From: Parasutterella excrementihominis YIT 11859
Lineage (GTDB): Bacteria > Pseudomonadota > Gammaproteobacteria > Burkholderiales > Burkholderiaceae_F
Assembly: GCF_000205025.1 (NCBI RefSeq)
Contig: NZ_GL883677.1
Coordinates: 1 to 64,000 of the forward strand
DNA: 64,000 nucleotides
Direction of reading: 5' to 3'
The notes under the pieces: generated by a model
The model's database searches: none
Told to the model about the DNA's origin: nothing
The model's input: the letters and a program-made list of their open reading frames with translations, nothing else
Translations under genes and position numbers: made by a program
In this document: piece by piece, positions 26,943-43,722 of the stretch
Numbering within the stretch: the first letter of the stretch is position 1
Layout: each line of letters opens with the position of its first letter

Positions 26943-28811
26943 ATGACACCGTCCCGTACTCTCGAACTTCTCGCTCCCTGCAAGACCTGCGATATCGGCA
27001 TCGAAGCCTTCAAACACGGCGCTGATGCCGTCTATATCGGCGGACCGCTTTTCAGCGCCCGCGCCAATGCCGGGAACTCCATGTCGGAAATAGAGCGTCT
27101 TGCTTCCTTCGCGCACCGTTTCAACGGACGTGTCTATATGGCACTGAATACGATCTTTTCCGATGAGGAACTGCCGGAGGCCGTAAGGCTCGCCCATCAG
27201 GCTTACCACGCAGGCGTTGATGCGCTGATCGTTCAAGACATGGGACTGCTGATGTGCGATCTGCCGCCGATCCAGCTGCATGCATCCACTCAGTGCGATA
27301 TCCGCACCACGGAAAAAGCCGTGTTTCTGGAATCCATCGGCTTTTCTCAGATCGTCCCTGCTCGTGAACTGACTTTGGGGCAGATCCAAGAGATGGCTGA
27401 AGCGCTGAAAACCGCCCGAATTGAATTCTTTATTCACGGCGCGCTTTGCGTCAGCTACAGCGGTCAATGCTACGCCAGTCAAGCCTTTAAAGGCCGGAGC
27501 GCCAACCGCGGAGACTGCGCGCAAATCTGCCGCCTCCCGTTTGACCTCTTTGACGAGGAAGGCAAATCTATCAGCCGCGGCAAACATCTCCTTTCCTTGA
27601 AAGACAACAACCAGTCTCAGAACCTAGACGCCCTCATTGCCGCCGGCGTTCGCAGCTTCAAGATTGAAGGCAGATACAAGGACCTGACTTACGTCAAGAA
27701 CACGACTGCTTTCTATCGTCGAGAACTTGATGCTTGGCTGGAAAAGCACCCGGACTTCGAAGCTGAGAGCGACGGAAAAGTCGAATTTAACTTTGAGCCC
27801 TCGCTCGAGAACGCTTTCAACCGCGGAGCAACCGACTACTTTGTCAACGGCCGCAGCGACCATATGGAGGCCTTCAGCACGCCGAAAAATTCCGGCGCCG
27901 TCATCGGCCAGGTCGTCAAAGTTAACGACCGCTCCTTCCTCGTTAAAACCAAAGAAGAACTCCATAACGGCGACGGCCTGACTTTCTTTACCGACACGGA
28001 TGAACTTTCAGGGCTTCTGATCAATCGTGCCGAACAAAAAGACACCGGTCTTTGGGAAGTCTTCACGCGCGAGCCCTGCAGCCGAATCACCGGCCTGAAA
28101 GAAGGTCTCCGCTTAATGCGCAATAAAGACGCGGCTTGGCTTAAACGAATGAATGCCGAGACTGCGCTCAGAAAGATCCCGATTCGCATCGAAGCTTCCG
28201 TCGGCCCGAACGGCATCGATATCCGTGCCGATGACGGTCACGGTCATCAATCCGAGGTTTCTCTTTTAGAACCTCTCCCGGAAGCCAAGAATCCGCAGGC
28301 AGTCAAAGAACAGGTTCTGCGCGCCTTGGGCAAACTCGGCTCCACCGACTTTGTTGCCGACAATATCCAAATTGAGGGAGATCATCCCGGTTTTATGAGC
28401 GCTTCTGTGCTTAACGGTCTTCGCAGAGAGCTGATCTCTCGCTTGGAAGAGGATCGTTCTCAAAAGAGAGAAATTCTTCCGCAGGCAGGAGATGACACAT
28501 CCGCCGTCTTCCCGGTTAAAGAACTGGACTATCACGGCAATGTCATGAACAAGAAGGCGCTTGAGTTTTACAAACTTCACGGAACTCAAGTCACCGAACC
28601 TGCCTTTGAGAAAGGACAGCATAAAGGCGAAACAGAAGTCATGCGCTGCCGCTACTGCATTCGTCACGCTTTGAACATCTGTCCGAAACAAGGCAAGCTG
28701 CGCGGCGAGAAAATCAAACCGACTCCGCTGAAGCTTCGAAACGGCAAAATTGAACTCACGGCTCACTTCCACTGCAAGCCGTGCGAAATGTCGTTGACTA
28801 CGAAGGTCTAA
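26943..28811 (+). CDS. rlhA: U32-family protein, RlhA-like (23S rRNA hydroxylation)
   Basis: 622 aa. The N-terminal U32 barrel starts ELLAPCKTCDIGIEAFKHGADAVYIGG and carries the signature FIHGALCVSYSGQCYASQ (about residues 160-177) with the cysteine set CAQICRLPF expected to hold an Fe-S cluster. A long C-terminal extension with HFHCKPCEM and RCRYCIRHALNICPKQ adds further cysteines. Length and layout match E. coli RlhA (YdcP, about 650 aa), which hydroxylates C2501 of 23S rRNA using prephenate. Other U32 members (TrhP, UbiU) are shorter, so RlhA is the best guess. Confidence 0.75.
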   Translation: MTPSRTLELLAPCKTCDIGIEAFKHGADAVYIGGPLFSARANAGNSMSEIERLASFAHRFNGRVYMALNTIFSDEELPEAVRLAHQAYHAGVDALIVQDMGLLMCDLPPIQLHASTQCDIRTTEKAVFLESIGFSQIVPARELTLGQIQEMAEALKTARIEFFIHGALCVSYSGQCYASQAFKGRSANRGDCAQICRLPFDLFDEEGKSISRGKHLLSLKDNNQSQNLDALIAAGVRSFKIEGRYKDLTYVKNTTAFYRRELDAWLEKHPDFEAESDGKVEFNFEPSLENAFNRGATDYFVNGRSDHMEAFSTPKNSGAVIGQVVKVNDRSFLVKTKEELHNGDGLTFFTDTDELSGLLINRAEQKDTGLWEVFTREPCSRITGLKEGLRLMRNKDAAWLKRMNAETALRKIPIRIEASVGPNGIDIRADDGHGHQSEVSLLEPLPEAKNPQAVKEQVLRALGKLGSTDFVADNIQIEGDHPGFMSASVLNGLRRELISRLEEDRSQKREILPQAGDDTSAVFPVKELDYHGNVMNKKALEFYKLHGTQVTEPAFEKGQHKGETEVMRCRYCIRHALNICPKQGKLRGEKIKPTPLKLRNGKIELTAHFHCKPCEMSLTTKV

Positions 28812-29665
28812 AACCTGAAGTTCATTTGAGCACGGTTCTTGGCATCCGAGATGGCATCCAAGAGCCGCGAATACGCCGGAGAATCCTGAGGCGTCAGAAG
28901 CAGCAGCTCCTGCCAAAATTCGACTGCTTTGCTGTATTGACCACTTTGGTAAGCCACGATTCCGCCGAGCTCAAGCGCTCGAATGTTGGAGGGCTCCAGC
29001 TTTACGGCTTGCTCAAGATCAGATACTGCCTGAGAGCGGAGCATGGGATCCGACGTTTCTAGGGCAAAGACAGCGCGCTGAACGCGATAATCCGCCGTTT
29101 TGGCAACTCCGTTCGGAGATACGTGAAAGGCCTCATTCATCGCATTTACGGCCTCTTTATATTGCCCCTCCCTCCCGAATTCATCAGCCAGCGCAAGCCA
29201 CGCACGAACCGCTCTAGGGCTTTCTTTAAGGAAAGTCTTGAGTTGTCCGATCCGGTCGGCCGGGTGTGCAGCTGCCTGCGCTTCCGGTGTTCCTTTATAA
29301 GTTACAAGGGAAGGATTAGCCCAGGAAAAATAAAGGAAAACAGCGGTTAAGGGAACGAGGAGACAAAGAAAAATAGAAACCGGCTTTACCCAGCTCGGAT
29401 TGCGGTATGCAACGTTGGGAGTTGCGGTTTCCTCGACTGCCCTAGCCTCAAGCTCGGAAAGTTCTGCGTCGTAGACAGCTTTGGAGATTCTGTGTTCGGC
29501 CAATTCTTGATTCAGGGTTTGGAATTGATCCTGATAAACCAGGCGATTGAGCCCTGTGTTTTCGACTTCCGTTTTAGAAGAAGAACGGAGGCCGATATAA
29601 AGACAAACTTCTAAAAGCAGAAGCAGTGCTGCGGCGCAGATCCAAAAGATAAGATCGGAGGACAT
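28808..29665 (-). CDS. Short CcmI/NrfG-like TPR protein for heme attachment
   Basis: 285 aa with two membrane helices (residues about 6-24 and 93-113) separated by a cytoplasmic coiled stretch (YQDQFQTLNQELAEHRISKAVYDAELSELE), then periplasmic TPR repeats. This is the CcmI/CycH plan, but it lacks the C-terminal domain of the full CcmI encoded elsewhere in the window. In the System I pathway such proteins present apocytochrome to the CcmF/H ligase. Its place after the octaheme cytochrome gene suggests a dedicated NrfG-like helper, perhaps for the unusual CXXCK site (inference). Confidence 0.75.
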   Translation of the reverse strand: MSSDLIFWICAAALLLLLEVCLYIGLRSSSKTEVENTGLNRLVYQDQFQTLNQELAEHRISKAVYDAELSELEARAVEETATPNVAYRNPSWVKPVSIFLCLLVPLTAVFLYFSWANPSLVTYKGTPEAQAAAHPADRIGQLKTFLKESPRAVRAWLALADEFGREGQYKEAVNAMNEAFHVSPNGVAKTADYRVQRAVFALETSDPMLRSQAVSDLEQAVKLEPSNIRALELGGIVAYQSGQYSKAVEFWQELLLLTPQDSPAYSRLLDAISDAKNRAQMNFRF

Positions 29666-29735: not shown

Positions 29736-31385
29736 TTACTTCTGGGCGGTCTGCTGAGCCTGGGGCTGAGCTTGTGCAGCAACTTTAGCAGCAACTGCGT
29801 CGCGGAGAAGTTTTGTTGCTTTCTGAGAGGCGGCCACGGATTTTGCCAGGGACTCTTTAGCCTGAGGCATATTGTGGAACCAAGAACCGTTGGAAGCGGT
29901 CCACCATTCCCAGTTGGTATGAGCAACAGAGTGGAGATCCTGAGCCTGTTTGATAACGGCAGGATCAACACCGGCGTCGTTAGCCTGTCTGAAGGCGATG
30001 AACATCTGGCCCATGGAGGCTTCGGCTTCACGAAGTTTGCCGTTGTAGTGAGCATTCATGGAGTCAAGAACCTTGTTCATCTGAGCTTCGGTCTTGTCCT
30101 TATGACACTGCAGACAGGTTTCCTGGATATATGCACGCGGTGTGGTTGCCCAGTGAGAGGTGTAAACGTCGCCGTTTGCATCTTTAACCTTCGGCATGTG
30201 GCAGGCTGCGCAGCCGACGCCCATTTGGTCATGCTTGGAGTTCCAATAGACTTCGGTGTCCGGGTGCTGCATCTTGGTTAGAAGAGCGCCGGTCTGATTG
30301 TGCTTGAAGTCCTTGAAAGAAGCATGTTTGTAGAAGTCTTCAATGCGGGTGACATCAACCAGCGGGAAGAGGTTCGTGCGCGGGTCGTCCATCTTGATGG
30401 GCTTGCCGGTAGCAGGATCGGTACCCGGGTTGCAGTTGTATTCAACGTGGCACTGTGCGCACATGAGTTTGCTGTCGGGTTTGCCGAGGATGGCGATCTT
30501 GCGGGTGAAGCCGCGAAGACCCATATCCTTAACTTCAATCGGAGTCTTGTTGGCGGATTCCGAATAAAGTGTCGGGTAGTCGGTACGAGTCATGGCCTGG
30601 ATCAATGCGTCGCGAACGATACGGGGCTGAGCACTGTGCGGGTCATGGCACATGTTACAGTTCAAAGCATGGTTGATGTTGTGAACCAGATCGACCGGGT
30701 TGGAAGCACGGCTCCACTTGGCCTTAGTGTTCGGGTCGCCCAAGTAGGCCCAATCCATCATGACGTCTGTAGATTTGCAGGTCCAGCAAACAGGGTTGGC
30801 TGCGGCTGCAGTACCGGGTTTATGAGGCTTCTGAGCGTTGCCGGGGATCGTGTCATCGATCTTTTCCCAGACGCCGAAGAAACCGCCGTTGTCACCGCTG
30901 AAGAGCCAGCCTTCTTTCGGTTGGAAGCGGCCGCCGAAGGAGCGGTCGGCAATAAACTGGTCGACTGCTGCATAAGCGTGCGATCTCGGCAGGTTGTGTT
31001 CTTTCACAAAGCCGTGAGCTCCGAGTGCTTCATCAAAGAAGGGATTCGGAGAGATGTTGTTCAAATTCTTCTTGGAATCGCGAGCGATACGATGATCGTT
31101 AACCTTGTACATCGTTTCGAATTGATTCGGGTGGCAGCTGCTGCACTGCTGTGGACTCATGGAAACCGTCGGATGAGTCTTAGGATTCTTTAAATGGTCA
31201 GCAGTACCGTCATGGCAGGTTGCGCACGGAAGGTTCGCATGTTTGGAACCGGTGTGCAGTGTGCCGATGTTGGAGTGACAGGCGGTACAGTTCGCATCAT
31301 TCTGAGCCGGAGCTGCATAAGAAACGCCAAAGTACCCGATCAATGCCAAAGCGAGGACAGAAGGAAAAAGGGGCATTTTTGTCAT
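29736..31385 (-). CDS. Octaheme cytochrome c nitrite reductase (ammonia-forming, NrfA/ONR family)
   Basis: Exported (signal peptide MTKMPLFPSVLALALIGYFGVSYA) 549-aa multiheme enzyme predicted to reduce nitrite to ammonium in the periplasm. Eight heme sites: Cys33, Cys54 and Cys81 (CXXCH), Cys200 (CWTCK, lysine-ligated catalytic heme), Cys243, Cys309, Cys392 and Cys424. The last five match pentaheme NrfA, including CAQCHVEY (active-site Tyr316) and the KMQH pair (Gln373-His374). Three extra N-terminal hemes and the Tyr316-Asn-Cys318 sequence match the octaheme TvNiR type, where the Tyr is cross-linked to that Cys. The frame is open upstream to 31610, but the ATG at 31385 has an AAGGA site and begins the signal peptide. 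A low-complexity QAQPQAQQTAQ tail ends it. Confidence 0.88.
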   Translation of the reverse strand: MTKMPLFPSVLALALIGYFGVSYAAPAQNDANCTACHSNIGTLHTGSKHANLPCATCHDGTADHLKNPKTHPTVSMSPQQCSSCHPNQFETMYKVNDHRIARDSKKNLNNISPNPFFDEALGAHGFVKEHNLPRSHAYAAVDQFIADRSFGGRFQPKEGWLFSGDNGGFFGVWEKIDDTIPGNAQKPHKPGTAAAANPVCWTCKSTDVMMDWAYLGDPNTKAKWSRASNPVDLVHNINHALNCNMCHDPHSAQPRIVRDALIQAMTRTDYPTLYSESANKTPIEVKDMGLRGFTRKIAILGKPDSKLMCAQCHVEYNCNPGTDPATGKPIKMDDPRTNLFPLVDVTRIEDFYKHASFKDFKHNQTGALLTKMQHPDTEVYWNSKHDQMGVGCAACHMPKVKDANGDVYTSHWATTPRAYIQETCLQCHKDKTEAQMNKVLDSMNAHYNGKLREAEASMGQMFIAFRQANDAGVDPAVIKQAQDLHSVAHTNWEWWTASNGSWFHNMPQAKESLAKSVAASQKATKLLRDAVAAKVAAQAQPQAQQTAQK

Positions 31386-31425
31386 TTTTAAGTCCTTAAA
31401 AAGACCGAAACTTTTTCTTGGTGTA

Positions 31426-31449
31426 TGTGAACCGAAATATTTGTTCACA
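31426..31449. promoter_or_regulatory. Dyad operator candidate upstream of the octaheme cytochrome
   Basis: Perfect TGTGAAC-N10-GTTCACA, 41 to 64 bases before the cytochrome start. The half-sites recall CRP boxes, but the spacing is 8 bases too wide for a single CRP site. No binding protein can be named. Confidence 0.45.
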
Positions 31450-31654
31450 ATGTAAGTTTGAAGTCTTATGAGTCTTAATTCAACCTTAAAAACGGTGTAC
31501 CTCCTAATTTCTCTCTTATCTACCTCTTCAGAGATAAGAACAATGCCGTAGCCATTTCGCGTTTTATTCCCAAAACACGGGAAGGGTCGACCATACGAAA
31601 ATTTAGTCAATAAAATAACAAGAAAATTTGATTTCTCAACAAGAAGGTAGCTTC

Positions 31655-32440
31655 ATGAAAAAAATTAAACTTTTGACTGCTCTGGCCCTGGCATCCGCAG
31701 CTTTTGCTGTTTCTGCCCAGAACATTGCCACCGTGAACGGCAAACCGATTCCTAAGTCTCTCCAAGACGAATGGGTCGCCCAGCTCGTAGCAAACGGCGG
31801 TAAAGACACTCCGGAAGCACGCCGTCAAATTACCGAAAATTTAGTGGCCAACGCTTTGGTTGAACAGGAAGCCGCAAAACGCAAGATTTCTGACGATCCC
31901 AAAGTTAAGTTCGCTTTAGATTACGCCAAATTCCGCATTCTTCAGGAAGCGCTTCTGAGAGATGAGATGGCTAAGCACCCGGTCAGCGAAAAAGAAATCA
32001 AGGCTCGCTACGAAGAAGAAAAAGCAGCCCTTGGCAATAAAGAATATGAAGTCAGCCACATTCTGGTCAAAGATCAGAAGACCGCTGAGAATATTGAAAA
32101 GAAACTGGCTGCCGGCGGCAACTTCGCTGCTTTGGCCAAAGAATTTTCTGTTGACACCGGCGCCAAAGAAAACGGCGGAGACTTAGGCTGGAACCGTCCT
32201 GCGGTATTTGTTAAACCGTTTGCCGACGCCGTCAAGAACATGAAGAAAGGCGAAATTTCCAAGGCACCGGTTAAAACCGAATTCGGCTGGCATATCATCA
32301 AGGTCAACGATGTTAAGGAAGTCCCCTTCCCAACTTACGACTCTGTTAAGGATCAGATCCGCGAAGGTCTGGAGCTGAAAAAACAGCAGAACTTCCTCAA
32401 TGAACTGATGAAGACCAATAAGATCGAATACGGCAAATAA
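31655..32440 (+). CDS. Periplasmic parvulin-type peptidyl-prolyl isomerase
   Basis: 261 aa with a signal peptide (MKKIKLLTALALASAAFAVSA). An N-terminal SurA-like chaperone segment (VNGKPIPKSLQDEWVAQL...) is followed by a rotamase domain (residues about 130-225: YEVSHILVKDQKTAENI, FAALAKEFSVDTGAKENGGDLGW, FGWHIIKV). It helps fold exported proteins. The start is the ATG after AGAAGG; an upstream in-frame ATG at 31628 would precede the signal with nine hydrophilic residues. Divergent from the octaheme cytochrome gene; a terminator follows. Confidence 0.85.
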   Translation: MKKIKLLTALALASAAFAVSAQNIATVNGKPIPKSLQDEWVAQLVANGGKDTPEARRQITENLVANALVEQEAAKRKISDDPKVKFALDYAKFRILQEALLRDEMAKHPVSEKEIKARYEEEKAALGNKEYEVSHILVKDQKTAENIEKKLAAGGNFAALAKEFSVDTGAKENGGDLGWNRPAVFVKPFADAVKNMKKGEISKAPVKTEFGWHIIKVNDVKEVPFPTYDSVKDQIREGLELKKQQNFLNELMKTNKIEYGK

Positions 32441-32523: not shown

Positions 32524-33900
32524 TTAGCGAGCAACCACATTCGTTAACTTGAGCGTTACATCGTCAGCGCCGACCTTAACAGGAGCGGAAGTCTGCCCCT
32601 CCAGATCTCCGTTCACAGGCATCATCTGCTGAGCATAGCCTAAACGAGCCGTGATCATGACGGTGTCATGCTCGTCTAACGTGCCGCCGCCCATATCCAT
32701 CGGCGGAAGCATGGTGTTGTCGAGCTTGAAGTGAACCGGGAAGCTCAGCACTTTGATCTTCAACTGAGCAATCGGTGCTCGGCTGCCGCTTGCCGGACGA
32801 GCGGTCACGTAAAGCGTGTCAAATTTGGCCGCCTGCTCTTCCAGTTTTGGATCCAGTTCCACCACGCCGGAAATGAAATGCGTCGCCTTCATCGCCTGTG
32901 CGGGAACCGGTGTCTGTCCCATCGGAGCAGAACCGTTCTTCATCATCTGGCTCATCATCGGGACAGCTCTATCATCCTTATTGACAGGGTTGCCAAAATC
33001 TAGCGTATCCTGAACCGGTCCGACAATATTGCCGAGTTTACGGGCTTCCTGAATACTGCCGATCACGGCTGCACGCATATCGTCGTTCGCAGAAAGCGTG
33101 CCGAGAAGACGTTCCCAATACATCACTGCGTGACGATAGTCGCCGCGGTTGAAGTAATCGGTACCGCCCATCATCAGAGCTTTCCAGTTGGTCGGATCAA
33201 TCTTGAGGGCTTTCTGTACGAGTTCCCAAGGTTTGCCGCTGAGATCCTGACCCTGAACCATCGCAATCGCGTCAGCCAAGTCAACCATGATGGCAGGATT
33301 GCCCGGAGCCAGCTGATCGGCCTTAGTAAAGGCAGCTTCGGCTTCCTTGTAATTCTTCATGGTCAGCATGGTGCGTCCGAGCATCATCCAGCCCTGAATG
33401 TCACCCGGAGTTTCTCTGAGATGATCACGCAGCTTCTTCAGTGCGGAATCCATGTCGTGCATTTCGCCAGCCTGGCGGACAACCGTACCGGTGTTGTAAT
33501 CCACCACGCCTTCATTGATACCGCCGTCTAAGCGGAAGTCACCGAGATGCTGTGTAGCAGCCCACATAGCCACGGCAAAGAAAGGAACAACCAGAACCAA
33601 GACAAAAACCGTGTAAACGCCGGCTTTTTGATTGGTCGGTTCGACCTGCTTTTCAGGAATGGATTCTTCAATCACGCGGCGCTCGAGCTCGAGACGGCTT
33701 TCGTCATATTCATTCTGAGAAATTGCGCCACGGGCCAATTCGTCTTCCAGTTCTTTGAACTGGTCGCGATAGATCGCAATATTAGCCTGAGGAAGCTCTT
33801 CGGCGCCCGTGTCCTTTTTACGGAATGTCAGCAGCGGAATACAAATGATCAAAAGCAGGACGATGATCATCGCTCCGGCTGAAAGTAAAAATGTCATCAT
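32524..33900 (-). CDS. ccmI: Cytochrome c maturation protein CcmI (CycH)
   Basis: 458 aa. Two membrane helices (near residues 5-25 and 95-115) bracket a cytoplasmic leucine-zipper-like loop. Periplasmic TPR units follow (e.g. MLGRTMLTMKNYKEAEAAFTKADQLAPGN), then a C-terminal CycH domain with beta-rich sequence (FISGVVELDPKLEEQAAKFDTLYVTARP). It presents apocytochromes to the CcmF-CcmH ligase. Last gene of the ccmABCDEFGHI operon, overlapping ccmH by 4 bases. It is the larger of two CcmI-like proteins in the window. Confidence 0.87.
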   Translation of the reverse strand: MMTFLLSAGAMIIVLLLIICIPLLTFRKKDTGAEELPQANIAIYRDQFKELEDELARGAISQNEYDESRLELERRVIEESIPEKQVEPTNQKAGVYTVFVLVLVVPFFAVAMWAATQHLGDFRLDGGINEGVVDYNTGTVVRQAGEMHDMDSALKKLRDHLRETPGDIQGWMMLGRTMLTMKNYKEAEAAFTKADQLAPGNPAIMVDLADAIAMVQGQDLSGKPWELVQKALKIDPTNWKALMMGGTDYFNRGDYRHAVMYWERLLGTLSANDDMRAAVIGSIQEARKLGNIVGPVQDTLDFGNPVNKDDRAVPMMSQMMKNGSAPMGQTPVPAQAMKATHFISGVVELDPKLEEQAAKFDTLYVTARPASGSRAPIAQLKIKVLSFPVHFKLDNTMLPPMDMGGGTLDEHDTVMITARLGYAQQMMPVNGDLEGQTSAPVKVGADDVTLKLTNVVAR

Positions 33901-34409
33901 TTGGCATCTCTCCTTTTCGCCGGTTCAGTTCCGCGAAGGAGCTCTTCGGCACGTCGTTTTTGTTCTTCCGTCAGTTCGACGGGTTTAAGTTTCTTGCGTT
34001 TTGCCATCGTGTAGAACAGTCCGCCTAAGGCGAGAACCAGAAAAAGAATCGGTCCGAGCCAAAGCAGAAGCGTACTCATCTTGAAAGGCGGATTGTAGAG
34101 AACGAAGTCTCCGTAACGGTCGACCATGAAGTCGATAATCTGCTGATTCGTCTTGCCTTCTGCGATCTGTTTGACGACCTGCTTTTTAAGGTCCATCGCA
34201 AGCTCGGCATTACTGTCGGCGATTGACTGGTTCTGGCAGACCAGGCAGCGCAGCTGGGCAGAAATTTCTGCCACGCGTTTGTTTGCCACAGGGTCAAGAA
34301 TCGTCGGCTTGACGTCAGGCTGTGCCGGACTCTGCTGTGCAGGCTGAGCATGAGCTCCGGTCAGTGCAAAAGCTGTAAAAAACAGTGCGAGTAAAAATTT
34401 CTTCATCAT
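33897..34409 (-). CDS. ccmH: Cytochrome c maturation thiol-oxidoreductase CcmH
   Basis: 170 aa, signal peptide then the LRCLVCQNQSIADSNAELA motif (Cys pair LRCxxC, about residues 53-56) that reduces the apocytochrome CXXCH disulfide. One membrane helix lies near residues 105-125, with a basic C-terminus. Overlaps ccmG and ccmI by 4 bases on each side. Confidence 0.92.
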   Translation of the reverse strand: MMKKFLLALFFTAFALTGAHAQPAQQSPAQPDVKPTILDPVANKRVAEISAQLRCLVCQNQSIADSNAELAMDLKKQVVKQIAEGKTNQQIIDFMVDRYGDFVLYNPPFKMSTLLLWLGPILFLVLALGGLFYTMAKRKKLKPVELTEEQKRRAEELLRGTEPAKRRDAK

Positions 34410-34942
34410 TCTGCTTTCAGTTGATTGATGAGAGGATGAATCTTCTTATCCCAGGCTTCCGGAGTGATCGGGCCGATCTGCTTGTAGCGAATCACGCCTT
34501 TCTTATCAATCACAAAGGTCTCGGGAACACCGTAGACACCGAAGTTGATGCCCACTTCACCGGTCGGATCTTTAATGGAGAAGTCATAAGGGTCGCCGCC
34601 CTGGCGCAGGAAGCGCATCGCGTCGGCATCCTTATCTTTGTAATCTAAGCCGATGATCGGGACGATCTTCTGGCCGCCCTTGCCGACCTTAACCATGGTC
34701 GGATGTTCCTGGCGGCAGGAACCGCACCAGGAGGACCAAACATTCAGCAGCCAGACCTGGCCCAGCATGTCCTTTTTAGAGACAACTTTGTTCGGGTCAT
34801 CGAGTCTCGGCAGAGAAAACTCCGGTGCAGGTTTTCCGATCAGCGGAGAAGGCACTTCTCGCGGGTCGCGGTTCAAACCCACCATGAGGAAGATCGCCAG
34901 TGCCAGGAAGATGACCAGCGGAAGAACATATTTCATTTTCAT
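34406..34942 (-). CDS. ccmG: Thiol:disulfide interchange protein CcmG/DsbE
   Basis: Membrane-anchored thioredoxin-fold protein of 178 aa (anchor at residues 5-23). The active site is WCGSC in LLNVWSSWCGSCRQEHP (usual CcmG: WCxxC), plus the acidic GLDYKDKDADAMRFL insert and the cis-proline segment YGVPETFVID. It keeps apocytochrome cysteines reduced for heme ligation. Confidence 0.93.
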   Translation of the reverse strand: MKMKYVLPLVIFLALAIFLMVGLNRDPREVPSPLIGKPAPEFSLPRLDDPNKVVSKKDMLGQVWLLNVWSSWCGSCRQEHPTMVKVGKGGQKIVPIIGLDYKDKDADAMRFLRQGGDPYDFSIKDPTGEVGINFGVYGVPETFVIDKKGVIRYKQIGPITPEAWDKKIHPLINQLKAE

Positions 34943-34954
34943 GATTCAAATCCC

Positions 34955-36910
34955 CTACTCTGCCTGGGCGCTGCGGACGCGGCGGCGAGTTCTGTAGCGT
35001 TTATCCAACATGGCGATAAAGGCACCGAAAGACATGATGAGCGTGCCCCACCAAATCCATGTCACGAAAGGCTTGTCGTAGGCGCGAACCACCCATGCGC
35101 CGTCGACGGTCTGGTCACCCATGGATACGTAGACGTCGCCGGTAATCGAAGAGCTGATCGCTGCTTCGGTCATGGGCATCTGACTGGAGAAGTACTTGCG
35201 TTTCTGAGGTGTCAGGGTCGCAACTTCTTTGCCGTTTTCCGTGACCTTAAACACACCTTCGTCAGCGATGTAGTTCGGGCCGCGGATACCGCGTTTGACG
35301 TCTTCAAACTTGAAGTCGTAAGAACCGACGTTGACCTCGTGGCCCGGCGTCATCGTGACGTCGCGCTCCAGAGAGTACGTCATGACCATGCCGATACCGA
35401 CGATGGAAACGGCAACACCCAAGTGCGCAATCATCATGCCCCACCAAGAGCGGGAGAGTTTGAAGATCTTGCCGAAGAAATTGCCCTTGAAGTTGCGGAT
35501 GTTTTCACGCAAAGATTCAATGAAGGTGAATAAGACCCACCAAGAGAGCGTCAGACCGACAAAGAGCCAGGTACTCCAGCCTTTGATCAGCGGGGTGGCA
35601 GCGCCGAGAATCACTGCGGCGATAAAGCACCAGGCCGTACGTTTGACGATGTCGGAAATCTTGGCGTCTTTCCAGCGTACCAGTGGCCCGATACCCATGA
35701 GAAGAATCACAGGCACCATGATCGGTCCGAAAACGGAATCAAAGTAAGGAGGTCCGACGGAAATCTTGCCAGCATTCAGCGCGTCAATAAACAGCGGATA
35801 GAGCGTACCCAAGAGGACGGCCAGCATGGCGACAACGAGAAGCACGTTGTTCACAAGCAGCATCGCTTCTCGAGAGAACAGTTCGAAGGCGCCGCCGGTA
35901 CCGACTTTAGGTGCTCTCCAGGCAAATAGAAGCAGAGAGCCGCCGATCACCAGAACGAGGAGTCCGAGAATGAAGAGGCCGCGCTGCGGGTCGGTCGCGA
36001 AAGCGTGCACACTGGTGAGCACGCCGGAACGGACGAGGAAAGTGCCAAGCAGCGACAGAGAGAAAGTGATCAGAGCCAGAAGAACGGTCCAAATCTTGAA
36101 GCAGCCGCGTTTTTCGGTCACGGCCAAAGAGTGAAGCAGTGCGGTTGCTGTGAGCCACGGCATGAAGGAAGCGTTTTCAACCGGATCCCAGAACCACCAG
36201 CCGCCCCAGCCTAATTCGTAGTAAGACCAGTAGGAACCTAAGGAAATACCGAGGGTCAGGAAAATCCAAGCTGCGCTTGTCCAAGGACGGGTCCAGCGAG
36301 CCCAAGCTGCGTCCAGGCGGCCGCCGATCAAAGCAGCAACGGCAAACGCAAAAGGAACGACCATACCGACGTAACCCATATAAAGCAGAGGCGGATGGAA
36401 AACCATACCCGGGTCCTGCAGCAGCGGGTTCAGGTCTCGGCCTTCGTGAGCAGCCGGGAACAGACGAATGAACGGGTCACTGGTAAGGAGCATGAAAAGC
36501 GTCAGGCCGACGGAAATCAGACCCATAACACCGATGACGCGGGCCATCACGTCCTGCGGGAGGCGGCGAGAACAGACGGCAACCGCTAAGCCCCAAAGAG
36601 CCAGCAGCAGTGTCCAGAAAAGAATGGAGCCTTCATGAGAGCCCCAAGTGGCCGACAAACGGTAGAACCACGGCAGCATGCTGTTGGAGTTGTTTGCCAC
36701 GTTCATGACGGAGAAGTCACTTGTGTAGAAACACCAAGCCAAACAGCAGAATGCGAACGTGCAGAAAACAGCGTTGGCAAACACGGCCGGACGAGCCACG
36801 TTAACCCAGCTGCGCACGCCTAATGCGGTACCCGCCAAGGGAAGAAGACCTTGGATCAGGGCCGCAATCAGGGCCAAGATCAAGGAAAAATGACCTAACT
36901 CTGCAATCAT
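34955..36910 (-). CDS. ccmF: Cytochrome c heme lyase subunit CcmF
   Basis: Large polytopic membrane protein (651 aa; family about 650). The tryptophan-rich WWD motif ELGWGGWWFWDPVENASFMPW lies at about residues 230-250. Conserved His are in GSHEGSILFW and HPPLLYMGYVG. It ligates heme from CcmE to the apocytochrome thiols. Only one CcmF is encoded here, so it may also have to serve the CXXCK heme of the octaheme reductase, for which enteric bacteria use NrfE. Confidence 0.95.
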   Translation of the reverse strand: MIAELGHFSLILALIAALIQGLLPLAGTALGVRSWVNVARPAVFANAVFCTFAFCCLAWCFYTSDFSVMNVANNSNSMLPWFYRLSATWGSHEGSILFWTLLLALWGLAVAVCSRRLPQDVMARVIGVMGLISVGLTLFMLLTSDPFIRLFPAAHEGRDLNPLLQDPGMVFHPPLLYMGYVGMVVPFAFAVAALIGGRLDAAWARWTRPWTSAAWIFLTLGISLGSYWSYYELGWGGWWFWDPVENASFMPWLTATALLHSLAVTEKRGCFKIWTVLLALITFSLSLLGTFLVRSGVLTSVHAFATDPQRGLFILGLLVLVIGGSLLLFAWRAPKVGTGGAFELFSREAMLLVNNVLLVVAMLAVLLGTLYPLFIDALNAGKISVGPPYFDSVFGPIMVPVILLMGIGPLVRWKDAKISDIVKRTAWCFIAAVILGAATPLIKGWSTWLFVGLTLSWWVLFTFIESLRENIRNFKGNFFGKIFKLSRSWWGMMIAHLGVAVSIVGIGMVMTYSLERDVTMTPGHEVNVGSYDFKFEDVKRGIRGPNYIADEGVFKVTENGKEVATLTPQKRKYFSSQMPMTEAAISSSITGDVYVSMGDQTVDGAWVVRAYDKPFVTWIWWGTLIMSFGAFIAMLDKRYRTRRRVRSAQAE

Positions 36911-36918
36911 TTCAACTC

Positions 36919-37365
36919 CTACTCTTTCATGGCGCGAGCTTTCTTATGCGCGTCCTGCACGGCTTTTTCAGCCTCGGGCGGCATATAGTTCTCGTCATGT
37001 TTTGCTAAGACTTGGTCAGCCACAAAAACACCGTTTTGCAGTTTTCCCTGAGCGACCACGCCCTTGCCTTCTTTAAACAAATCGGGCAGGCTGCCCTTGT
37101 ATGTCACGGGAACGGTATGAGCCGTATCCGTCACCTCGAAGCGAACCGTCACGCCGTCTTTCTGACGCTGAACGGAACCTTCCTGTACAAATCCGCCGAT
37201 GCGGAATGCTCTGCCTTCCGGCGCTTCATGAGCTGCTACCTGGGAAGGGGAGAAGAAAAACACGAGGTTCTCTTCAAATGCATTGAAAACCAGGGCCGCA
37301 GCGGCACCGCAAATTATTAAGCCTCCGGCTATGAGCCCGAGACGTTTTTTCTGTGTGCTGTTCAT
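36919..37365 (-). CDS. ccmE: Heme chaperone CcmE
   Basis: 148 aa, one N-terminal anchor helix (residues 10-28) and the OB-fold domain. The heme-binding histidine is H123 in [12 protein letters not shown], with the axial Tyr127 of the HxxxY motif. It carries heme covalently from CcmC to CcmF. Confidence 0.94.
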
Positions 37366-37550
37366 AAATCCTCCTCAGCTTGGTGCGCGCGTGCTTCCAT
37401 CAGCAGCTCTTTTGCCGCTTTCTGTCTTCTGCGCACCAGCCCGAACACTTCGCAAATAAAACAAAAGAAAACCATTCCGTAGGCGCCCCACACGTACTGT
37501 GCGTAACCGCCCATCGCAAAGAAATCTGAAATTCCGGACCACTGACCCAT
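37362..37550 (-). CDS. ccmD: Heme exporter protein CcmD
   Basis: A 62-residue single-helix protein ([24 protein letters not shown]) with a charged C-terminus. Small size, the GYAxYVWxAYG motif and the position between ccmC and ccmE identify it. It helps release holo-CcmE from CcmABC. Confidence 0.88.
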
Positions 37551-38287
37551 TACAGTTCTCCTTTAAGCGCAAGTTGCTGTGCCCATTCCTGATTGCGTTC
37601 GCGCTCCAAAATCACAGAACGCAGACGGACGAAGGTCACTGCAAAGGTGTAAAGCCAAAAACCGATGACCATCAGAGCCAGAGCCCAAAGCATCACCGGA
37701 TGAATAGACGAACCCGAAGCTGTAATGGAAGCCCCCTGATGAAGCGTGTTCCACCACTGAACCGAGAAGTAAACGATGGGTACGTTGATCACGCCGACAA
37801 TGCCGATCACCGCGCAGGCCTTATCAGCGCGGCGCCAATCGGGAATGGCGTTCTGCAGCGCGATATAACCTAAATAGAAGAAGAACAGAATCAAGGCACT
37901 GGTAAGACGCGCGTCCCAAACCCAGTAGGCGCCCCATGTCGGGCGCCCCCAGAGAGAACCGGTCCAAAGTGCAAGGAAAGCCATCAGACAGCCGGTCGGT
38001 GCTAAAGAGGCAGCAACCATCGGCCAAAGGCGGTTTTCTGTAATCAGGCCCAAAGAGCAGAAGATCGCCATCACCACATAAAGCAGCATGGCCATCCAGG
38101 CGCAAGCGACGTGGATATAAAGAATGCGGTAGGAGTTGCCCTGTGTTGCGTCGACCGGTGCCAGAAAAAAGCCGACATACATCGCCGCAAGAATGACGAT
38201 AATGGCCAAAATAAAGCACGGCCGCAGCGCCTTTCCGGCAAAACTGTACATCCCCTCAGGAGTAAGGATTGACTTGTTAGTTTTCAT
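37550..38287 (-). CDS. ccmC: Heme exporter protein CcmC
   Basis: Six-helix membrane protein of 245 aa with the WWD-type motif WGRPTWGAYWVWDARLTS (about residues 115-132) and conserved His residues (YIHVACAW and WNTLHQGAS). It loads heme onto CcmE. Overlaps ccmD by one base. Confidence 0.94.
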   Translation of the reverse strand: MKTNKSILTPEGMYSFAGKALRPCFILAIIVILAAMYVGFFLAPVDATQGNSYRILYIHVACAWMAMLLYVVMAIFCSLGLITENRLWPMVAASLAPTGCLMAFLALWTGSLWGRPTWGAYWVWDARLTSALILFFFYLGYIALQNAIPDWRRADKACAVIGIVGVINVPIVYFSVQWWNTLHQGASITASGSSIHPVMLWALALMVIGFWLYTFAVTFVRLRSVILERERNQEWAQQLALKGEL

Positions 38288-38307
38288 AATGCGTCCAAAA
38301 AAGCAAA

Positions 38308-38976
38308 TTAATCCGATGCAAATCTCAGCGCTGCTGAGGTTGCGACAGGCATCACGACTAAAGAGAAGAGCGTGAGCGCGCCGACAATAAAGAAATAAGC
38401 GGCTGAGTTAATCCCGACTGCCACTGCTTCTGCAGCTCCAGCGCCGAAAATCAAAACAGGAATATACAAGGGAAGAACGAGAAGCGACGTCAATACGCTT
38501 CCGCCTCTGAGTCCGAGTGTGAGCGCAGCTCCGACACTGCCCACTAAACTCAGCACCGGCGTACCGATGAAGAGCGAACTCATCATGACCAGCGCAACAT
38601 CGGCTTGTAGGTCGAACATGAGCGCAAACAAGCCGGAGATTAATGTCAGAGGAATACCTGTGGTGAGCCAATGCGCAAAGACTTTTGCGATGACGATAAC
38701 CGTTAAAGGCTCACCGGAAAGAAGCATCTGCTCCAATGTTCCGTCTGCATAGTCATTGGCAAAAAGACGCGGGAGTGAAAGCAAAGCGGCTAAGAGCGCT
38801 GCAACCCAGACGACGCCGGGTGCAATCATTCTTAAGAGCTGCTGGTCGGGTCCGATTCCGAGCGGAACCAGGGTCACAACCACAATAAAGAAGAAGACCG
38901 TGTTTAAAACATCGGATCTTTGACGGAGGGCTAATTTGAGATCCCGCCGAACAACGGCTAAGAATAATCGAAACAT
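38308..38976 (-). CDS. ccmB: Heme exporter protein CcmB
   Basis: Six-helix ABC permease of 222 aa. Typical signatures are RRDLKLALRQRSDVLNTVFFF at the N-terminus and GPDQQLLRMIAPGVVWVAALLAALLSLPRLF. Works with CcmA in releasing holo-CcmE. Starts 2 bases after ccmA. Confidence 0.93.
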   Translation of the reverse strand: MFRLFLAVVRRDLKLALRQRSDVLNTVFFFIVVVTLVPLGIGPDQQLLRMIAPGVVWVAALLAALLSLPRLFANDYADGTLEQMLLSGEPLTVIVIAKVFAHWLTTGIPLTLISGLFALMFDLQADVALVMMSSLFIGTPVLSLVGSVGAALTLGLRGGSVLTSLLVLPLYIPVLIFGAGAAEAVAVGINSAAYFFIVGALTLFSLVVMPVATSAALRFASD

Positions 38977-38978
38977 GA

Positions 38979-39674
38979 TTAAGCCACCTCTCCTGCCAAA
39001 TCGTGTTTTTTAACCATCCTGCCGTTCAACCAGCGGCCGCCCGTCAGTTCGATGCGCTGAACATTATTGGCTGCAATCGGGACTTCCTGATGCGTCGTAA
39101 AAGCCACAATTCCGCCTTCATTAACATGCTCGACAATTAGATTGGCTAAATTTGCCACGGCTTTAACGTCCAAAGCTGTGAAAGGTTCGTCTAAGACCCA
39201 GAATCCTGCGTGGCGGCTAAGGTAAAGACGGGCAAGTGCAACGCGTCTTCTCTGACCTTGAGAAAGGTGACGCGTGTAGTGATCTTCAAAGCCTTCAAGA
39301 CCCACCATTGCGAGTGCGTGATCGGCCTGTTCTTTAGTGACCGGATGCTCCCCGATCTCACAATTAATAAGAAGGTTTTCTCGGGCAGTGAGCTCGTCTT
39401 TGACACCGTTTAAGTGCCCGATGTAAACGAGATCTTTCCAGAACTCTTCTTTGAGCTTTTTAATGGGTTCGTTTTTCCAAAGGATTTGACCTTCCTGGGG
39501 CTGCATTAAGCCGACAAGAAGACGCAGGAGACTGGTCTTGCCTGTGCCGTTGGGTCCTGCAATACGGACCAGGGTGCCGGCAGCGCACTGGAAATTCAGC
39601 TTGGAAAACAGCAGCCGCTCTCCGCGTATACATCGAACCGACTGAAGCTCAAGCTTGGCTTTCTCTTCTGACAT
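38979..39674 (-). CDS. ccmA: Cytochrome c maturation ATP-binding protein CcmA
   Basis: ABC ATPase of 231 aa: Walker A GPNGTGKTS (about residues 40-48, usual GPNGAGKTS), signature LSQGQRRRVALARL, Walker B FWVLDEPFTALD and H-loop TTHQE. First gene of the ccmABCDEFGHI operon, which fills 7 kb of the minus strand with tight spacing and several 4-base overlaps. Confidence 0.94.
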   Translation of the reverse strand: MSEEKAKLELQSVRCIRGERLLFSKLNFQCAAGTLVRIAGPNGTGKTSLLRLLVGLMQPQEGQILWKNEPIKKLKEEFWKDLVYIGHLNGVKDELTARENLLINCEIGEHPVTKEQADHALAMVGLEGFEDHYTRHLSQGQRRRVALARLYLSRHAGFWVLDEPFTALDVKAVANLANLIVEHVNEGGIVAFTTHQEVPIAANNVQRIELTGGRWLNGRMVKKHDLAGEVA

Positions 39675-40069: not shown

Positions 40070-41170
40070 ATGACAGAAACTAACTATCAATTGATGCGGC
40101 GGCAAGGTGTCTCAAGACGCAGTTTCCTTAAATTCTGCTCTTTGACAGCCGCTTCCCTCGGACTCGGTGCAAACGGCGCAGCGGACATCGCCCACGCGAT
40201 GGAAACTAAACCACGTACTCCGGTTATCTGGCTCCACGGCCTGGAATGCACCTGCTGTACTGAATCTTTCATTCGTTCCTACCATCCGCTGACCAAAGAC
40301 GTCATCCTTTCGATGATTTCTCTGGCCTACGACGACACACTGATGGTCGCTGCCGGTGAACAAGATCACCAGGCCCTCGAAGACGTCATGAAGAAATTCA
40401 ACGGCAACTACATCCTGGCTGTTGAAGGATCTCCCTGCCTCGGCGCTGACGGCATGTTCTGTCTGCCCGGCGGCAAACCCTTCCTTGAAAAACTAATGCA
40501 CGTTGCTAAAGGCGCAAAGGCCGTTATCGCCTGGGGCTCCTGCTCTTCCTGGGGCTGCATCAACACAGCCAAACCGAACCCGACAAAATCTGTTCCTATT
40601 ACAGATGTCATCAAAGATAAGCCGATTATCCGCGTACCGGGCTGCCCCCCGATTCCGGAAGTCATGACAGGCGTCATCACTTACATGCTGACATATGACC
40701 GTCTGCCTCCGGTTGACGCTCAGCTTCGTCCGAAGATGTTCTACGGCCAGCGCAACCACGATAAGTGCTATCGCCGCGCTCACTTCGACGCAGGTCAGTT
40801 CGTTGAAAAATTCGACGACATCGGCGCCAAACTCGGCTACTGCCTCTACAAGGTCGGCTGCAAGGGACCTGTCACTTACAACTCCTGCTCTTCTATCCGT
40901 TGGAACGACATGCTGTCTTGGCCGGTTGAATCCGGACATCCGTGCTTGGCCTGCTCCGAAGACAACTTCTGGGATAAGGGCAGCTTCTACGCTCACGAAC
41001 CGACCATCCTGCCTCCGAGCTGGGGTCTTGGCATCCAGGCTACTGCTGACCGCGTAGGCTTGGCTGCTCTTGGCGTTATGGGTGCCGCTGTGGCTGTTCA
41101 CGCCGCTGCAAGCGCCGTCGCTCGCGCCAAGTCAAAAGAAGTCAACAAGGACATGGGAGTAAATGAATAA
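40070..41170 (+). CDS. hyaA: Uptake [NiFe] hydrogenase small subunit, oxygen-tolerant type
   Basis: Electron-transfer subunit, 366 aa. The Tat signal VSRRSFLKF (residues 14-22) exports the folded heterodimer. The proximal cluster region has CTCCTES (Cys60, Cys62, Cys63), GSCSSWGC (Cys158, Cys163) and PGCPP (Cys192). These six cysteines have the same spacing as C17, C19, C20, C115, C120 and C149 of E. coli Hyd-1, which hold a [4Fe-3S] cluster linked to oxygen tolerance. Medial and distal cluster ligands follow ([29 protein letters not shown]). The C-terminal helix ([18 protein letters not shown]) anchors it to HyaC. Group 1d-like. Confidence 0.95.
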
Positions 41171-42939
41171 TGGCAAATAAGAAAGTTGTTGTTGACCCTG
41201 TAACCCGAATCGAGGGTCACTTACGTATGCAGGCCGTCCTCGATGAAAACAATGTCATCGTCGACGCAATGTCAACCGGCACGATGTGGCGCGGTCTTGA
41301 AGTCATTCTGAAGGGACGCGACCCCCGTGATGCATGGGCCTTTGTGGAACGCGTCTGCGGCGTCTGCACCGGTATTCATGCTCTGTCTGCCGTTCGCGCG
41401 GTTGAAGACGCTCTCGGAATCCAGATTCCGAAGAACGCCAACATCATCCGCAACCTGATGAACGCTACGCTGTACAGCCAGGACCACCTGACTCACTTCT
41501 ATCAGCTCCACGGCTGCGACTGGATTGACGTCGTCTCCGCTTTGAGCGCCGACCCGAAGAAGACCAGCGAAATCCAGCAGTCCATTTCCACGCATGCTCT
41601 CTCCTCTCCTGCTTACTTCAAAGAAGTTCAGGACCGCTTGAAAGCATTCGTCGCCAGCGGCCAGCTCGGTATTTTTGCTAACGCTTACTGGGGCAACCCC
41701 GGCTACAAACTTCCTCCGGAAATCAACCTTCTGGGCGTTACTCACTATCTCGAAAGCTTGGACTTCCAGCGCGAAATCGTTAAGGTCCACGCTATCGTCG
41801 GCGGCAAGAACCCCCACCCGAACTATCTGGTTGGCGGCGTTCCCTGCCCGATTAACATGAGCGACACAGGTGCCCAGGGCATCATGATCAACCAGGTTTG
41901 GATGAACTTCCTGCGCGATGTGGCTAAGTCCACCATCCGCTTCATCGATGAAGTCTACTATCCTGACCTGATCGCTATGCAGGCTTACTACAAAGACTGG
42001 TACAAGATCGGCGGAGGCCTCGCCAACAAGAATCTGCTCTGCTACGGCGACTTCCCGGCTTATGCCAACGATATGTCCGAAAAGAGCCTCGTTATGCCGA
42101 ACGGCGCCGTTATCGACGGCAAGTTCGACCAGATTCTTCCGGTTGACCTTAAGGATCCCAACCAGATCAAAGAATTCGTTGATCACTCTTGGTACTCTTA
42201 TCCGAAACCCGACGAAGGTCTGCATCCTTGGGAAGGTATCACCGACCCGAACTTCGACCTCGGCAAAGCCGGCGTCGATTACGAAGGCACCAAGACCGAC
42301 ATCAAGTGGCTCACCACAAACGCCCGCTACTCTTGGATCAAAGCTCCGAGATGGAACGGACACGCTATGGAAACCGGTCCCCTTGCACGTATGGTTGTCG
42401 CCTACGCCAAGAAGATGCCGCGCCAGAAAGAACTCGTCGACCGCGCTCTTGCTCAGGCCGGCGTACCTGTCGAAGCTCTCTTCTCCACGCTCGGCCGTAC
42501 CCTCTGCCGCGGTTTGGAAGCCAAGATGTGCGCTCAACTCATGCTCGAATACGTTGATGAACTCGAAGCCAACATCAAGGCCGGTGACGAAGTCGCTGCC
42601 AACATGGATAAATGGGAACCGAGTACTTGGCCGAAAGAATGCAAAGGCGTCGGTCAGTGCGAAGCTCCGCGCGGTGCCCTCGGACACTGGTGCGTTATTA
42701 AAGACGGCGTGATCGAAAACTGGCAGGCTGTTGTTCCGTCTACGTGGAATGCTTCTCCGCGTGACACCAAGGGCCAGCTCGGTGCATACGAAGCCGCTCT
42801 GCTCGGCACACCTGTTGCCGTAGCTGATCAGCCTCTCGAAATCTTGCGTACGATCCATAGCTTTGACCCGTGCTTGGCCTGCGCAACTCACGTCATGTCG
42901 ACCAGCGGTGAGGAACTCTGCAAAGTTCAAGTCCGCTAA
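41170..42939 (+). CDS. hyaB: Uptake [NiFe] hydrogenase large subunit
   Basis: Catalytic subunit of 589 aa holding the Ni-Fe(CN)2CO site. N-terminal ligands are in [11 protein letters not shown] (about residues 58-68) and C-terminal ligands in [10 protein letters not shown] 15-residue tail after that His ([15 protein letters not shown]) is the propeptide removed by HyaD. The start ATG shares one base with the hyaA stop. It oxidises H2 in the periplasm. Confidence 0.96.
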
Positions 42940-42951
42940 TTAGGAGGTTTT

Positions 42952-43722
42952 ATGAAAATCTCGAAATGGGCATACAGCATTGAGGAAGGCCCGATTGAAC
43001 CCGTGTACGTGTACGAAGCACCTGTACGCTTCTGGCACTGGGCTCAGTGCGCCGCATTCTTCATGCTGGTCATTACGGGTTTCCTGATTGGCTGGCCGCC
43101 GATTGCTAACTACGCCACCACTTGGGATACCTACTTCTTCGGGAATATCATCCTGCTGCACTTGGTTTGCGGCATGCTGTTCGCCGTTTTGATGCTCTAT
43201 CGTATTTATTGGGCATTCGTCGGCAACAAGTATTCCCGTATGATCTTCATCCTTCCTTTCTGGGATATGGAATGGATTAAAGGTATTTTCGGCACCGCCC
43301 TCTATTACCTTTTCCTGAACAAACACCCGAAGGAATATGTGGGTCATAACCCTCTGGCTCAGACGGCCATGTGTCTCATGTACGTCCTCGGCTCCATCCT
43401 GATCATCCTGACCGGTTTAGGCCTCTACGCCGAACAGTGGGGATGGGATACAGGCTGGATGTCCTGGTTCGGCTGGGTTACAGCATGGCTCGGCGGTCCT
43501 CAGCCGGTGCGTACCTTCCATCATCTTCTGATGTACTACCTGCTCATCTTCCTCTGCGCTCACCTTTACATGAGCTTCCGTGAAGACATCATGGGCGGCG
43601 GCACACAGGTTTCTACGATGATCAACGGTATCCGCTTCTTCAAGGAACCGATCCGTCAGCCGGGTAACGAAGACATTCCGCCTTCTGACATCCCGAATGC
43701 TTCTTCTGCCAACAAAGCCTAG
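42952..43722 (+). CDS. hyaC: Hydrogenase cytochrome b subunit
   Basis: Di-heme b-type membrane protein of 256 aa with four helices. Heme-ligating His are in the RFWHWAQCAAFF helix, the ILLHLVCGMLFAVL helix and the FHHLLMYYLLIFLCAHLYMSFRED helix. It accepts electrons from the small subunit and reduces quinone. A GGAGG ribosome site precedes the ATG. Confidence 0.93.
   Translation: MKISKWAYSIEEGPIEPVYVYEAPVRFWHWAQCAAFFMLVITGFLIGWPPIANYATTWDTYFFGNIILLHLVCGMLFAVLMLYRIYWAFVGNKYSRMIFILPFWDMEWIKGIFGTALYYLFLNKHPKEYVGHNPLAQTAMCLMYVLGSILIILTGLGLYAEQWGWDTGWMSWFGWVTAWLGGPQPVRTFHHLLMYYLLIFLCAHLYMSFREDIMGGGTQVSTMINGIRFFKEPIRQPGNEDIPPSDIPNASSANKA

What the first reader, a model, noticed from the sequence alone, without database searches (positions are those of the whole stretch)
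29736..31385. Octaheme nitrite reductase with the Tyr-X-Cys cross-link signature in a host-type betaproteobacterium
Three extra N-terminal CXXCH sites precede an NrfA-like five-heme core whose catalytic site is CWTCK, so the lysine-ligated heme is the fourth of eight. The active-site tyrosine is followed by Asn-Cys, the same spacing as Tyr303/Cys305 in Thioalkalivibrio TvNiR, where the two side chains are covalently linked. An automatic annotation would simply call it NrfA and miss the distinction.
Basis: partly seen in the sequence, partly recalled or inferred. Interest (0 to 1): 0.65.

Follow-up and report, generated by a model that had tools for sequence, protein, structure and literature searches.

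The report
Gut Parasutterella octaheme nitrite reductase

Summary
Window 29736-31385 (-) encodes a 549-aa exported protein with seven CXXCH sites and one CWTCK as the fourth site. It aligns end to end with the solved octaheme nitrite reductases (ONRs) TvNiR, TpNiR and TaNiR (E about 1e-132, 41-43% identical, TM-score about 0.92), and with pentaheme NrfA only in part (about 20%). R148, K204, Y316, C318, Q373 and H374 fall on TvNiR R131, K188, Y303, C305, Q360 and H361. The genome is a Parasutterella; ONRs are common in its family. The gene lies beside ccmABCEFGHI with a CcmI/CycH-like TPR gene directly downstream, an arrangement partly conserved in Burkholderiales, which suggests help with CXXCK maturation. 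NarGHI, NapAGH and two NapC-type tetrahemes make nitrate-to-ammonium plausible. Side points: a 2020 paper lists P. excrementihominis as lacking nitrite reductase; natural Tyr-X-Gly ONRs exist; a divergent paralogue family lost the Tyr and carries a CX4CH site. Verdict: new member of a known kind.

The parts
29736..31385 (-). onr: octaheme cytochrome c nitrite reductase, 549 aa with N-terminal signal peptide; hemes at residues 33-37, 54-58, 81-85, 200-204 (CWTCK, catalytic), 243-247, 309-313, 392-396, 424-428; R148, Y316, C318, Q373, H374 in the distal pocket
28808..29665 (-). CcmI/CycH-like TPR protein (285 aa), 70 bp downstream of onr on the same strand; proposed NrfG-like partner for heme attachment at the CXXCK site
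   Evidence: Pfam TPR_CcmH_CycH E 1.7e-16; a CcmI/CycH-type gene lies within 700 bp downstream in 24 of 47 ONR loci with enough flank
32524..33900 (-). ccmI (cycH)
   Evidence: Pfam TPR_CcmH_CycH and Ig_CycH
33897..34409 (-). ccmH
   Evidence: Pfam CcmH E 9e-50
34406..34942 (-). ccmG (thioredoxin-like)
   Evidence: reading of the translation; position in the conserved ccm block
34955..36910 (-). ccmF heme lyase
   Evidence: Pfam CcmF_C E 4e-125 and Cytochrom_C_asm
36919..39674 (-). ccmE, ccmC, ccmB, ccmA
   Evidence: ORFs; conserved ccmABCEFGHI-onr order in relatives; names are readings of the translations
31628..32440 (+). PpiC-type peptidyl-prolyl isomerase gene between ccmI and onr, opposite strand; probably not part of the system
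40070..43722 (+). hyaABC-type [NiFe] hydrogenase (small, large, cytochrome b subunits); a possible electron source, linkage to onr not shown
   Evidence: Pfam for the small subunit; ORFs

Best explanation
It is a periplasmic octaheme cytochrome c nitrite reductase (ONR) of Parasutterella. Nitrite made from nitrate (NarGHI and NapA are encoded elsewhere in the genome) binds the lysine-ligated heme 4 and is reduced by six electrons to ammonium. The seven other hemes pass electrons inward, probably from menaquinol through a NapC/NrfH-type tetraheme. Arg148, Tyr316 and His374 supply the distal pocket. Tyr316 is probably thioether-bonded to Cys318, as in TvNiR. The heme at CWTCK is probably attached by the neighbouring Ccm machinery with the CcmI/CycH-like TPR protein encoded just downstream. 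Shown here: sequence identity, motifs, fold, catalytic residues, gene order, presence of nitrate reductases. Inferred: activity, cross-link, electron route, maturation role.
For: Full-length PDB matches only to ONRs at E about 1e-132, NrfA at 5e-27 or weaker over partial stretches. AlphaFold model pLDDT 86, target TM-score 0.91-0.93 to TvNiR, TpNiR and TaNiR, against 0.61-0.73 to NrfA and no meaningful match to MccA. Six catalytic positions identical to TvNiR. Tree inside a well-supported Parasutterella/Turicimonas ONR clade (98/100). ONR-level hits in more than half of 67 genomes of the family. ccm block upstream on the same strand in 10 related loci, CcmI/CycH-type gene downstream in 24. NarGHI, NapAGH and two NapC-type tetrahemes in the genome. 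No pentaheme NrfA found in the genome.
Against: No activity data. The cross-link cannot be seen in sequence. No dedicated electron donor gene is adjacent. P. excrementihominis cells swelled and burst at 1 mM nitrite (PMC7765368), which does not fit strong nitrite detoxification under those conditions. The CcmI/CycH-like neighbours are only 22-42% identical to the window's. The tree rests on one very distant NrfA outgroup, so its root is unsure.
Confidence: 0.93

Rival explanations
1. A pentaheme NrfA with an unrelated triheme domain fused in front.
For: Pfam and NCBIfam recognise mainly the C-terminal five-heme part as cytochrome c552/NrfA.
Against: Residues 31-537 align continuously to TvNiR and TaNiR including hemes 1-3; NrfA identity is only about 20%; Tyr-X-Cys is absent from E. 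coli NrfA, which has Tyr-Tyr-Phe.
Confidence: 0.02
2. An ONR-fold enzyme used mainly for another substrate (sulfite or hydroxylamine), with nitrite reduction secondary.
For: TvNiR also reduces hydroxylamine, sulfite and peroxide (PMC5433712); the same genome holds mcc/sir-type accessory genes.
Against: All catalytic residues match nitrite-reducing ONRs; nitrate reductases that make nitrite are present; the genome has a separate MccA-like protein, although only the C-terminal half.
Confidence: 0.07
3. A protein of the HAO, OTR or MccA families of octaheme cytochromes.
For: Eight hemes.
Against: No HAO, OTR or MccA sequence reached E 1e-3 in the PDB search; MccA is at noise level by fold (E 0.06 or worse); the catalytic heme has CXXCK at position 4.
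Confidence: 0.01

Closest known systems
TvNiR / TpNiR, octaheme nitrite reductases of Thioalkalivibrio (PDB 2ot4, 3f29, 3sxq)
   Same: Heme order 3 CXXCH + CXXCK + 4 CXXCH, full-length alignment, identical R/K/Y/C/Q/H pocket, TM-score about 0.92
   Different: 41-43% identity; Parasutterella is a neutral-pH gut organism, not a haloalkaliphile; hexamer and cross-link untested here
TaNiR, octaheme nitrite reductase of Trichlorobacter ammonificans (PDB 8rv0)
   Same: Same heme order and CAQCHVEYNCNPGT stretch, TM-score 0.93, 42% identity
   Different: Belongs to a different branch of the ONR tree
ONRs of other Sutterellaceae and environmental Burkholderiales (P. muris, Turicimonas, Duodenibacillus, Sutterella, Ramlibacter, Rubrivivax)
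   Same: 46-85% identity, same motifs, often the same ccm/CcmI gene neighbourhood
   Different: The residue between Tyr and Cys is Val or Ile in most Sutterella and in Mesosutterella, Asn elsewhere
Pentaheme NrfA (E. coli, Wolinella)
   Same: Five-heme core, CXXCK catalytic heme, Tyr/Gln/His pocket
   Different: No triheme N-terminal part, no Cys two residues after the Tyr, about 20% identity

Membership tests
[quoted passage not shown]
   CTACH CATCH CSSCH CWTCK CNMCH CAQCH CAACH CLQCH
ONR family (definition in PMC5433712) | Active-site tyrosine, arginine and cysteine | tested here: met
   Y316, R148, C318 on TvNiR Y303, R131, C305
ONR family (definition in PMC5433712) | More than 40% identity to TvNiR over the whole length | tested here: met
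   41-43%; residues 31-537 aligned
ONR family (PMC10716430) | 3 CXXCH, CXXCK, 4 CXXCH order, with a histidine between the sixth and seventh heme sites; monophyletic apart from NrfA | tested here: met
   H374 lies between heme 6 (309-313) and heme 7 (392-396); tree, with a single distant NrfA outgroup
ONR family (PMC10716430: calcium-dependent) | Calcium site near the active heme | tested here: inconclusive
   Residues at the NrfA-type calcium-site positions (E315, Y316, K371, Q373; positions from my knowledge of NrfA) are present and invariant in 41 sequences; no metal can be seen in a predicted model
ONR family | Tyr-Cys thioether bond | not testable with these tools
   Residues present; the bond needs mass spectrometry or a crystal structure
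ONR family | Homohexamer and nitrite-to-ammonium activity | not testable with these tools
   Needs purified protein
Pentaheme NrfA | Five hemes only, with no triheme N-terminal part | tested here: not met
MccA / HAO / OTR octahemes | Sequence or fold match to MccA, HAO or OTR | tested here: not met
   no hit at E 1e-3; MccA E 0.06 or worse

The most novel reading that the evidence does not exclude
In gut Sutterellaceae, ONR is the main or only enzyme for nitrite ammonification. It is matured with a linked CcmI/CycH-like helper that replaces NrfG, and it was missed in a published gene survey. The family also holds natural cross-link-less ONRs (Tyr-X-Gly) and a sister family that lost the catalytic tyrosine. 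Together these would give a natural series for testing what the Tyr-Cys bond does.
Probability: 0.4. Interest if true: 0.45.

Novelty: new member of a known kind. Interest (0 to 1): 0.25.

Why it matters
ONR is usually described from haloalkaliphiles and sediment bacteria. A soil-focused screen of a million genomes found it rare and does not name Sutterella or Parasutterella in its main text (PMC10716430). Its wide presence in Sutterellaceae means that gut nitrite budgets based on NrfA, NirB or NirK searches can overlook these bacteria; one 2020 survey lists P. excrementihominis as nitrite reductase-negative. [quoted passage not shown]

Tried and rejected
1) NrfA with a fused extra domain: rejected by the continuous full-length ONR match. 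2) HAO, OTR or MccA membership: rejected. 3) An FNR-type regulatory site upstream of onr: no consensus match within two mismatches in 31386-31627, and the number in the window equals chance. Promoter and terminator scans were near the shuffle mean and are not used. 5) Searching the held papers for an ONR in Parasutterella or Sutterella found none that names it; this covers open-licence papers only. 7) The exact species was not confirmed; genus Parasutterella is secure. P. excrementihominis is my guess, because P. muris and a rabbit MAG are the other two species of the genus held.

Full report
Check of the observation. The stated coordinates give a clean 549-residue frame on the minus strand, with eight heme sites in the order CTACH, CATCH, CSSCH, CWTCK, CNMCH, CAQCH, CAACH, CLQCH. 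The N-terminus is hydrophobic (MTKMPLFPSVLALALIGYFGVSYA) and the first 27 residues are unstructured in the model, as expected of a signal peptide.

What it is. A sequence search of solved structures returns the three known octaheme nitrite reductases over almost the whole length at E about 1e-132, and pentaheme NrfA only at 5e-27 or weaker over part of the chain. A model built from 41 window and relative sequences (pLDDT 86, pTM 0.86) superposes on TvNiR, TpNiR and TaNiR with target TM-scores of 0.91-0.93 and 41-43% identity. NrfA gives 0.61-0.73 at 18-22% and MccA is at noise level. In an alignment that includes TvNiR and TaNiR as printed, R148, K204, Y316, C318, Q373 and H374 coincide with TvNiR R131, K188, Y303, C305, Q360 and H361.

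Is the Tyr-X-Cys signature special? No. PMC5433712 defines the ONR family by seven CXXCH, one CXXCK and the active-site tyrosine, arginine and cysteine, and lists 64 members, many from neutral, non-saline habitats. A review also lists the Tyr-Cys link as a general difference between ONR and NrfA (PMC12285233). In my set every full-length ONR but two keeps Tyr-X-Cys. X is Asn in most, Val or Ile in most Sutterella and in Mesosutterella. The two exceptions have Tyr-X-Gly with the rest of the pocket intact: the second copy of a tandem pair in a Sutterella MAG (L054:9916-11526, Tyr-Ala-Gly) and a Nitrospiraceae MAG (L079, Tyr-Ile-Gly). Whether the bond itself forms in the window protein cannot be told from sequence.

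Who carries it. The window lies in a Parasutterella genome (85% identical to P. muris). In the family the tool counts any match in 42 of 67 genomes; most of these are ONR-level hits at E 1e-180 or better, a few are weak NrfA-like or fragmentary. The tree puts the window protein with Parasutterella and Turicimonas (98/100) among Sutterellaceae ONRs, separated by a 98/100 branch from the environmental Burkholderiales, Nitrospirota and solved ONRs. The outgroup is a single, very long NrfA branch, so the root and the placement of long branches are unsure.

Gene neighbourhood. A full ccmABCEFGHI block lies upstream of onr on the same strand, separated from it by an opposite-strand ppiC gene, and a CcmI/CycH-like TPR gene follows onr by 70 bp. 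In relatives, a ccm block lies upstream on the same strand in 10 loci and a CcmI/CycH-type gene lies within 700 bp downstream in 24 of 47 loci with enough sequence. In E. coli the CXXCK heme of NrfA needs the NrfEFG lyase, NrfG being a TPR protein (established knowledge; the nrfABCDEFG order is seen). I therefore infer that the downstream gene is an NrfG-like helper. This is inference from gene order; the neighbours are divergent (22-42% identity). The genome has a second CcmF/CcmH/CcmG set on contig C59, but that sits with NrfC/NrfD-like and NosL/D/F/Y-like genes and more likely serves another cytochrome.

Pathway. The genome encodes NarK-NarGHI (C23), NapAGH (C14) and two NapC/NrfH-type tetraheme cytochromes (C23, C14) (apart from the Pfam hits these names are my reading of the translations). 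No pentaheme NrfA was found with PF02335. With menaquinones reported for P. excrementihominis (PMC7765368), nitrate to nitrite to ammonium respiration is plausible, and the [NiFe] hydrogenase beside the ccm block could feed it. These links are inferred.

Conflict with the literature. PMC7765368 lists P. excrementihominis as nitrate reductase-positive but nitrite reductase-negative, and reports swollen, burst cells at 1 mM nitrite. All three Parasutterella genomes held here carry a full-length ONR. If the window genome is P. excrementihominis, which I could not confirm, the 'negative' entry is an annotation miss. The nitrite sensitivity is a genuine open point: the gene may be poorly expressed under those conditions. 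A 2025 survey names Parasutterella among genera with respiratory nitrate or nitrite reductases without saying which in the text read (PMC12998184), so some presence was already on record.

Verdict. Observation confirmed, interpretation supported, kind already known. The protein is a new member of the ONR family in a gut lineage, of modest interest.

Noticed in passing
G000 contig C57:10215-11888 (L039, P0002); relatives L091-L093, L117-L123: A divergent paralogue family about 32% identical to the ONR: seven CXXCH/CXXCK sites plus a CX4CH eighth site (CARSDCH), catalytic Tyr replaced by His, Ala or Phe and the Gln replaced by Asp, while the Lys, Arg and His are kept. Found in about 8 of 67 family genomes and in a Deferribacterales MAG; one 100/100 clade; function unknown.
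   Followed up: partly
L054:9916-11526 and L079:7977-9755: Natural ONRs with Tyr-X-Gly in place of Tyr-X-Cys; in L054 it sits next to an ordinary Tyr-Val-Cys copy.
   Followed up: partly
G000 contig C62:1796-2839 (L040): A 348-352 aa exported tetraheme protein matching only the C-terminal half of sulfite reductase MccA (393-700, E 9e-62), with a CX15CH site, beside ferredoxin-like, NrfD-like and what reads as an AOR-type oxidoreductase gene.
   Followed up: partly
G000 contig C59 (L115): A cluster reading as NrfC/NrfD-like, NosL, NosD, NosF, NosY and a second CcmF/CcmH/CcmG set, resembling mcc/sir accessory genes, with no octaheme gene seen in the stretch.
   Followed up: partly
L056, L064, L081: ONRs in which one of the heme sites 1-3 does not fit CXXCH; they may have an altered site or lack one heme.
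   Followed up: no
window 19867-21561: Tat-exported FAD-binding reductase of the fumarate-reductase flavoprotein type without heme domain.
   Followed up: no
PMC7765368 Table 2 (literature); window 29736-31385: Parasutterella excrementihominis is listed as lacking nitrite reductase, although the Parasutterella genomes held carry an intact ONR.
   Followed up: partly
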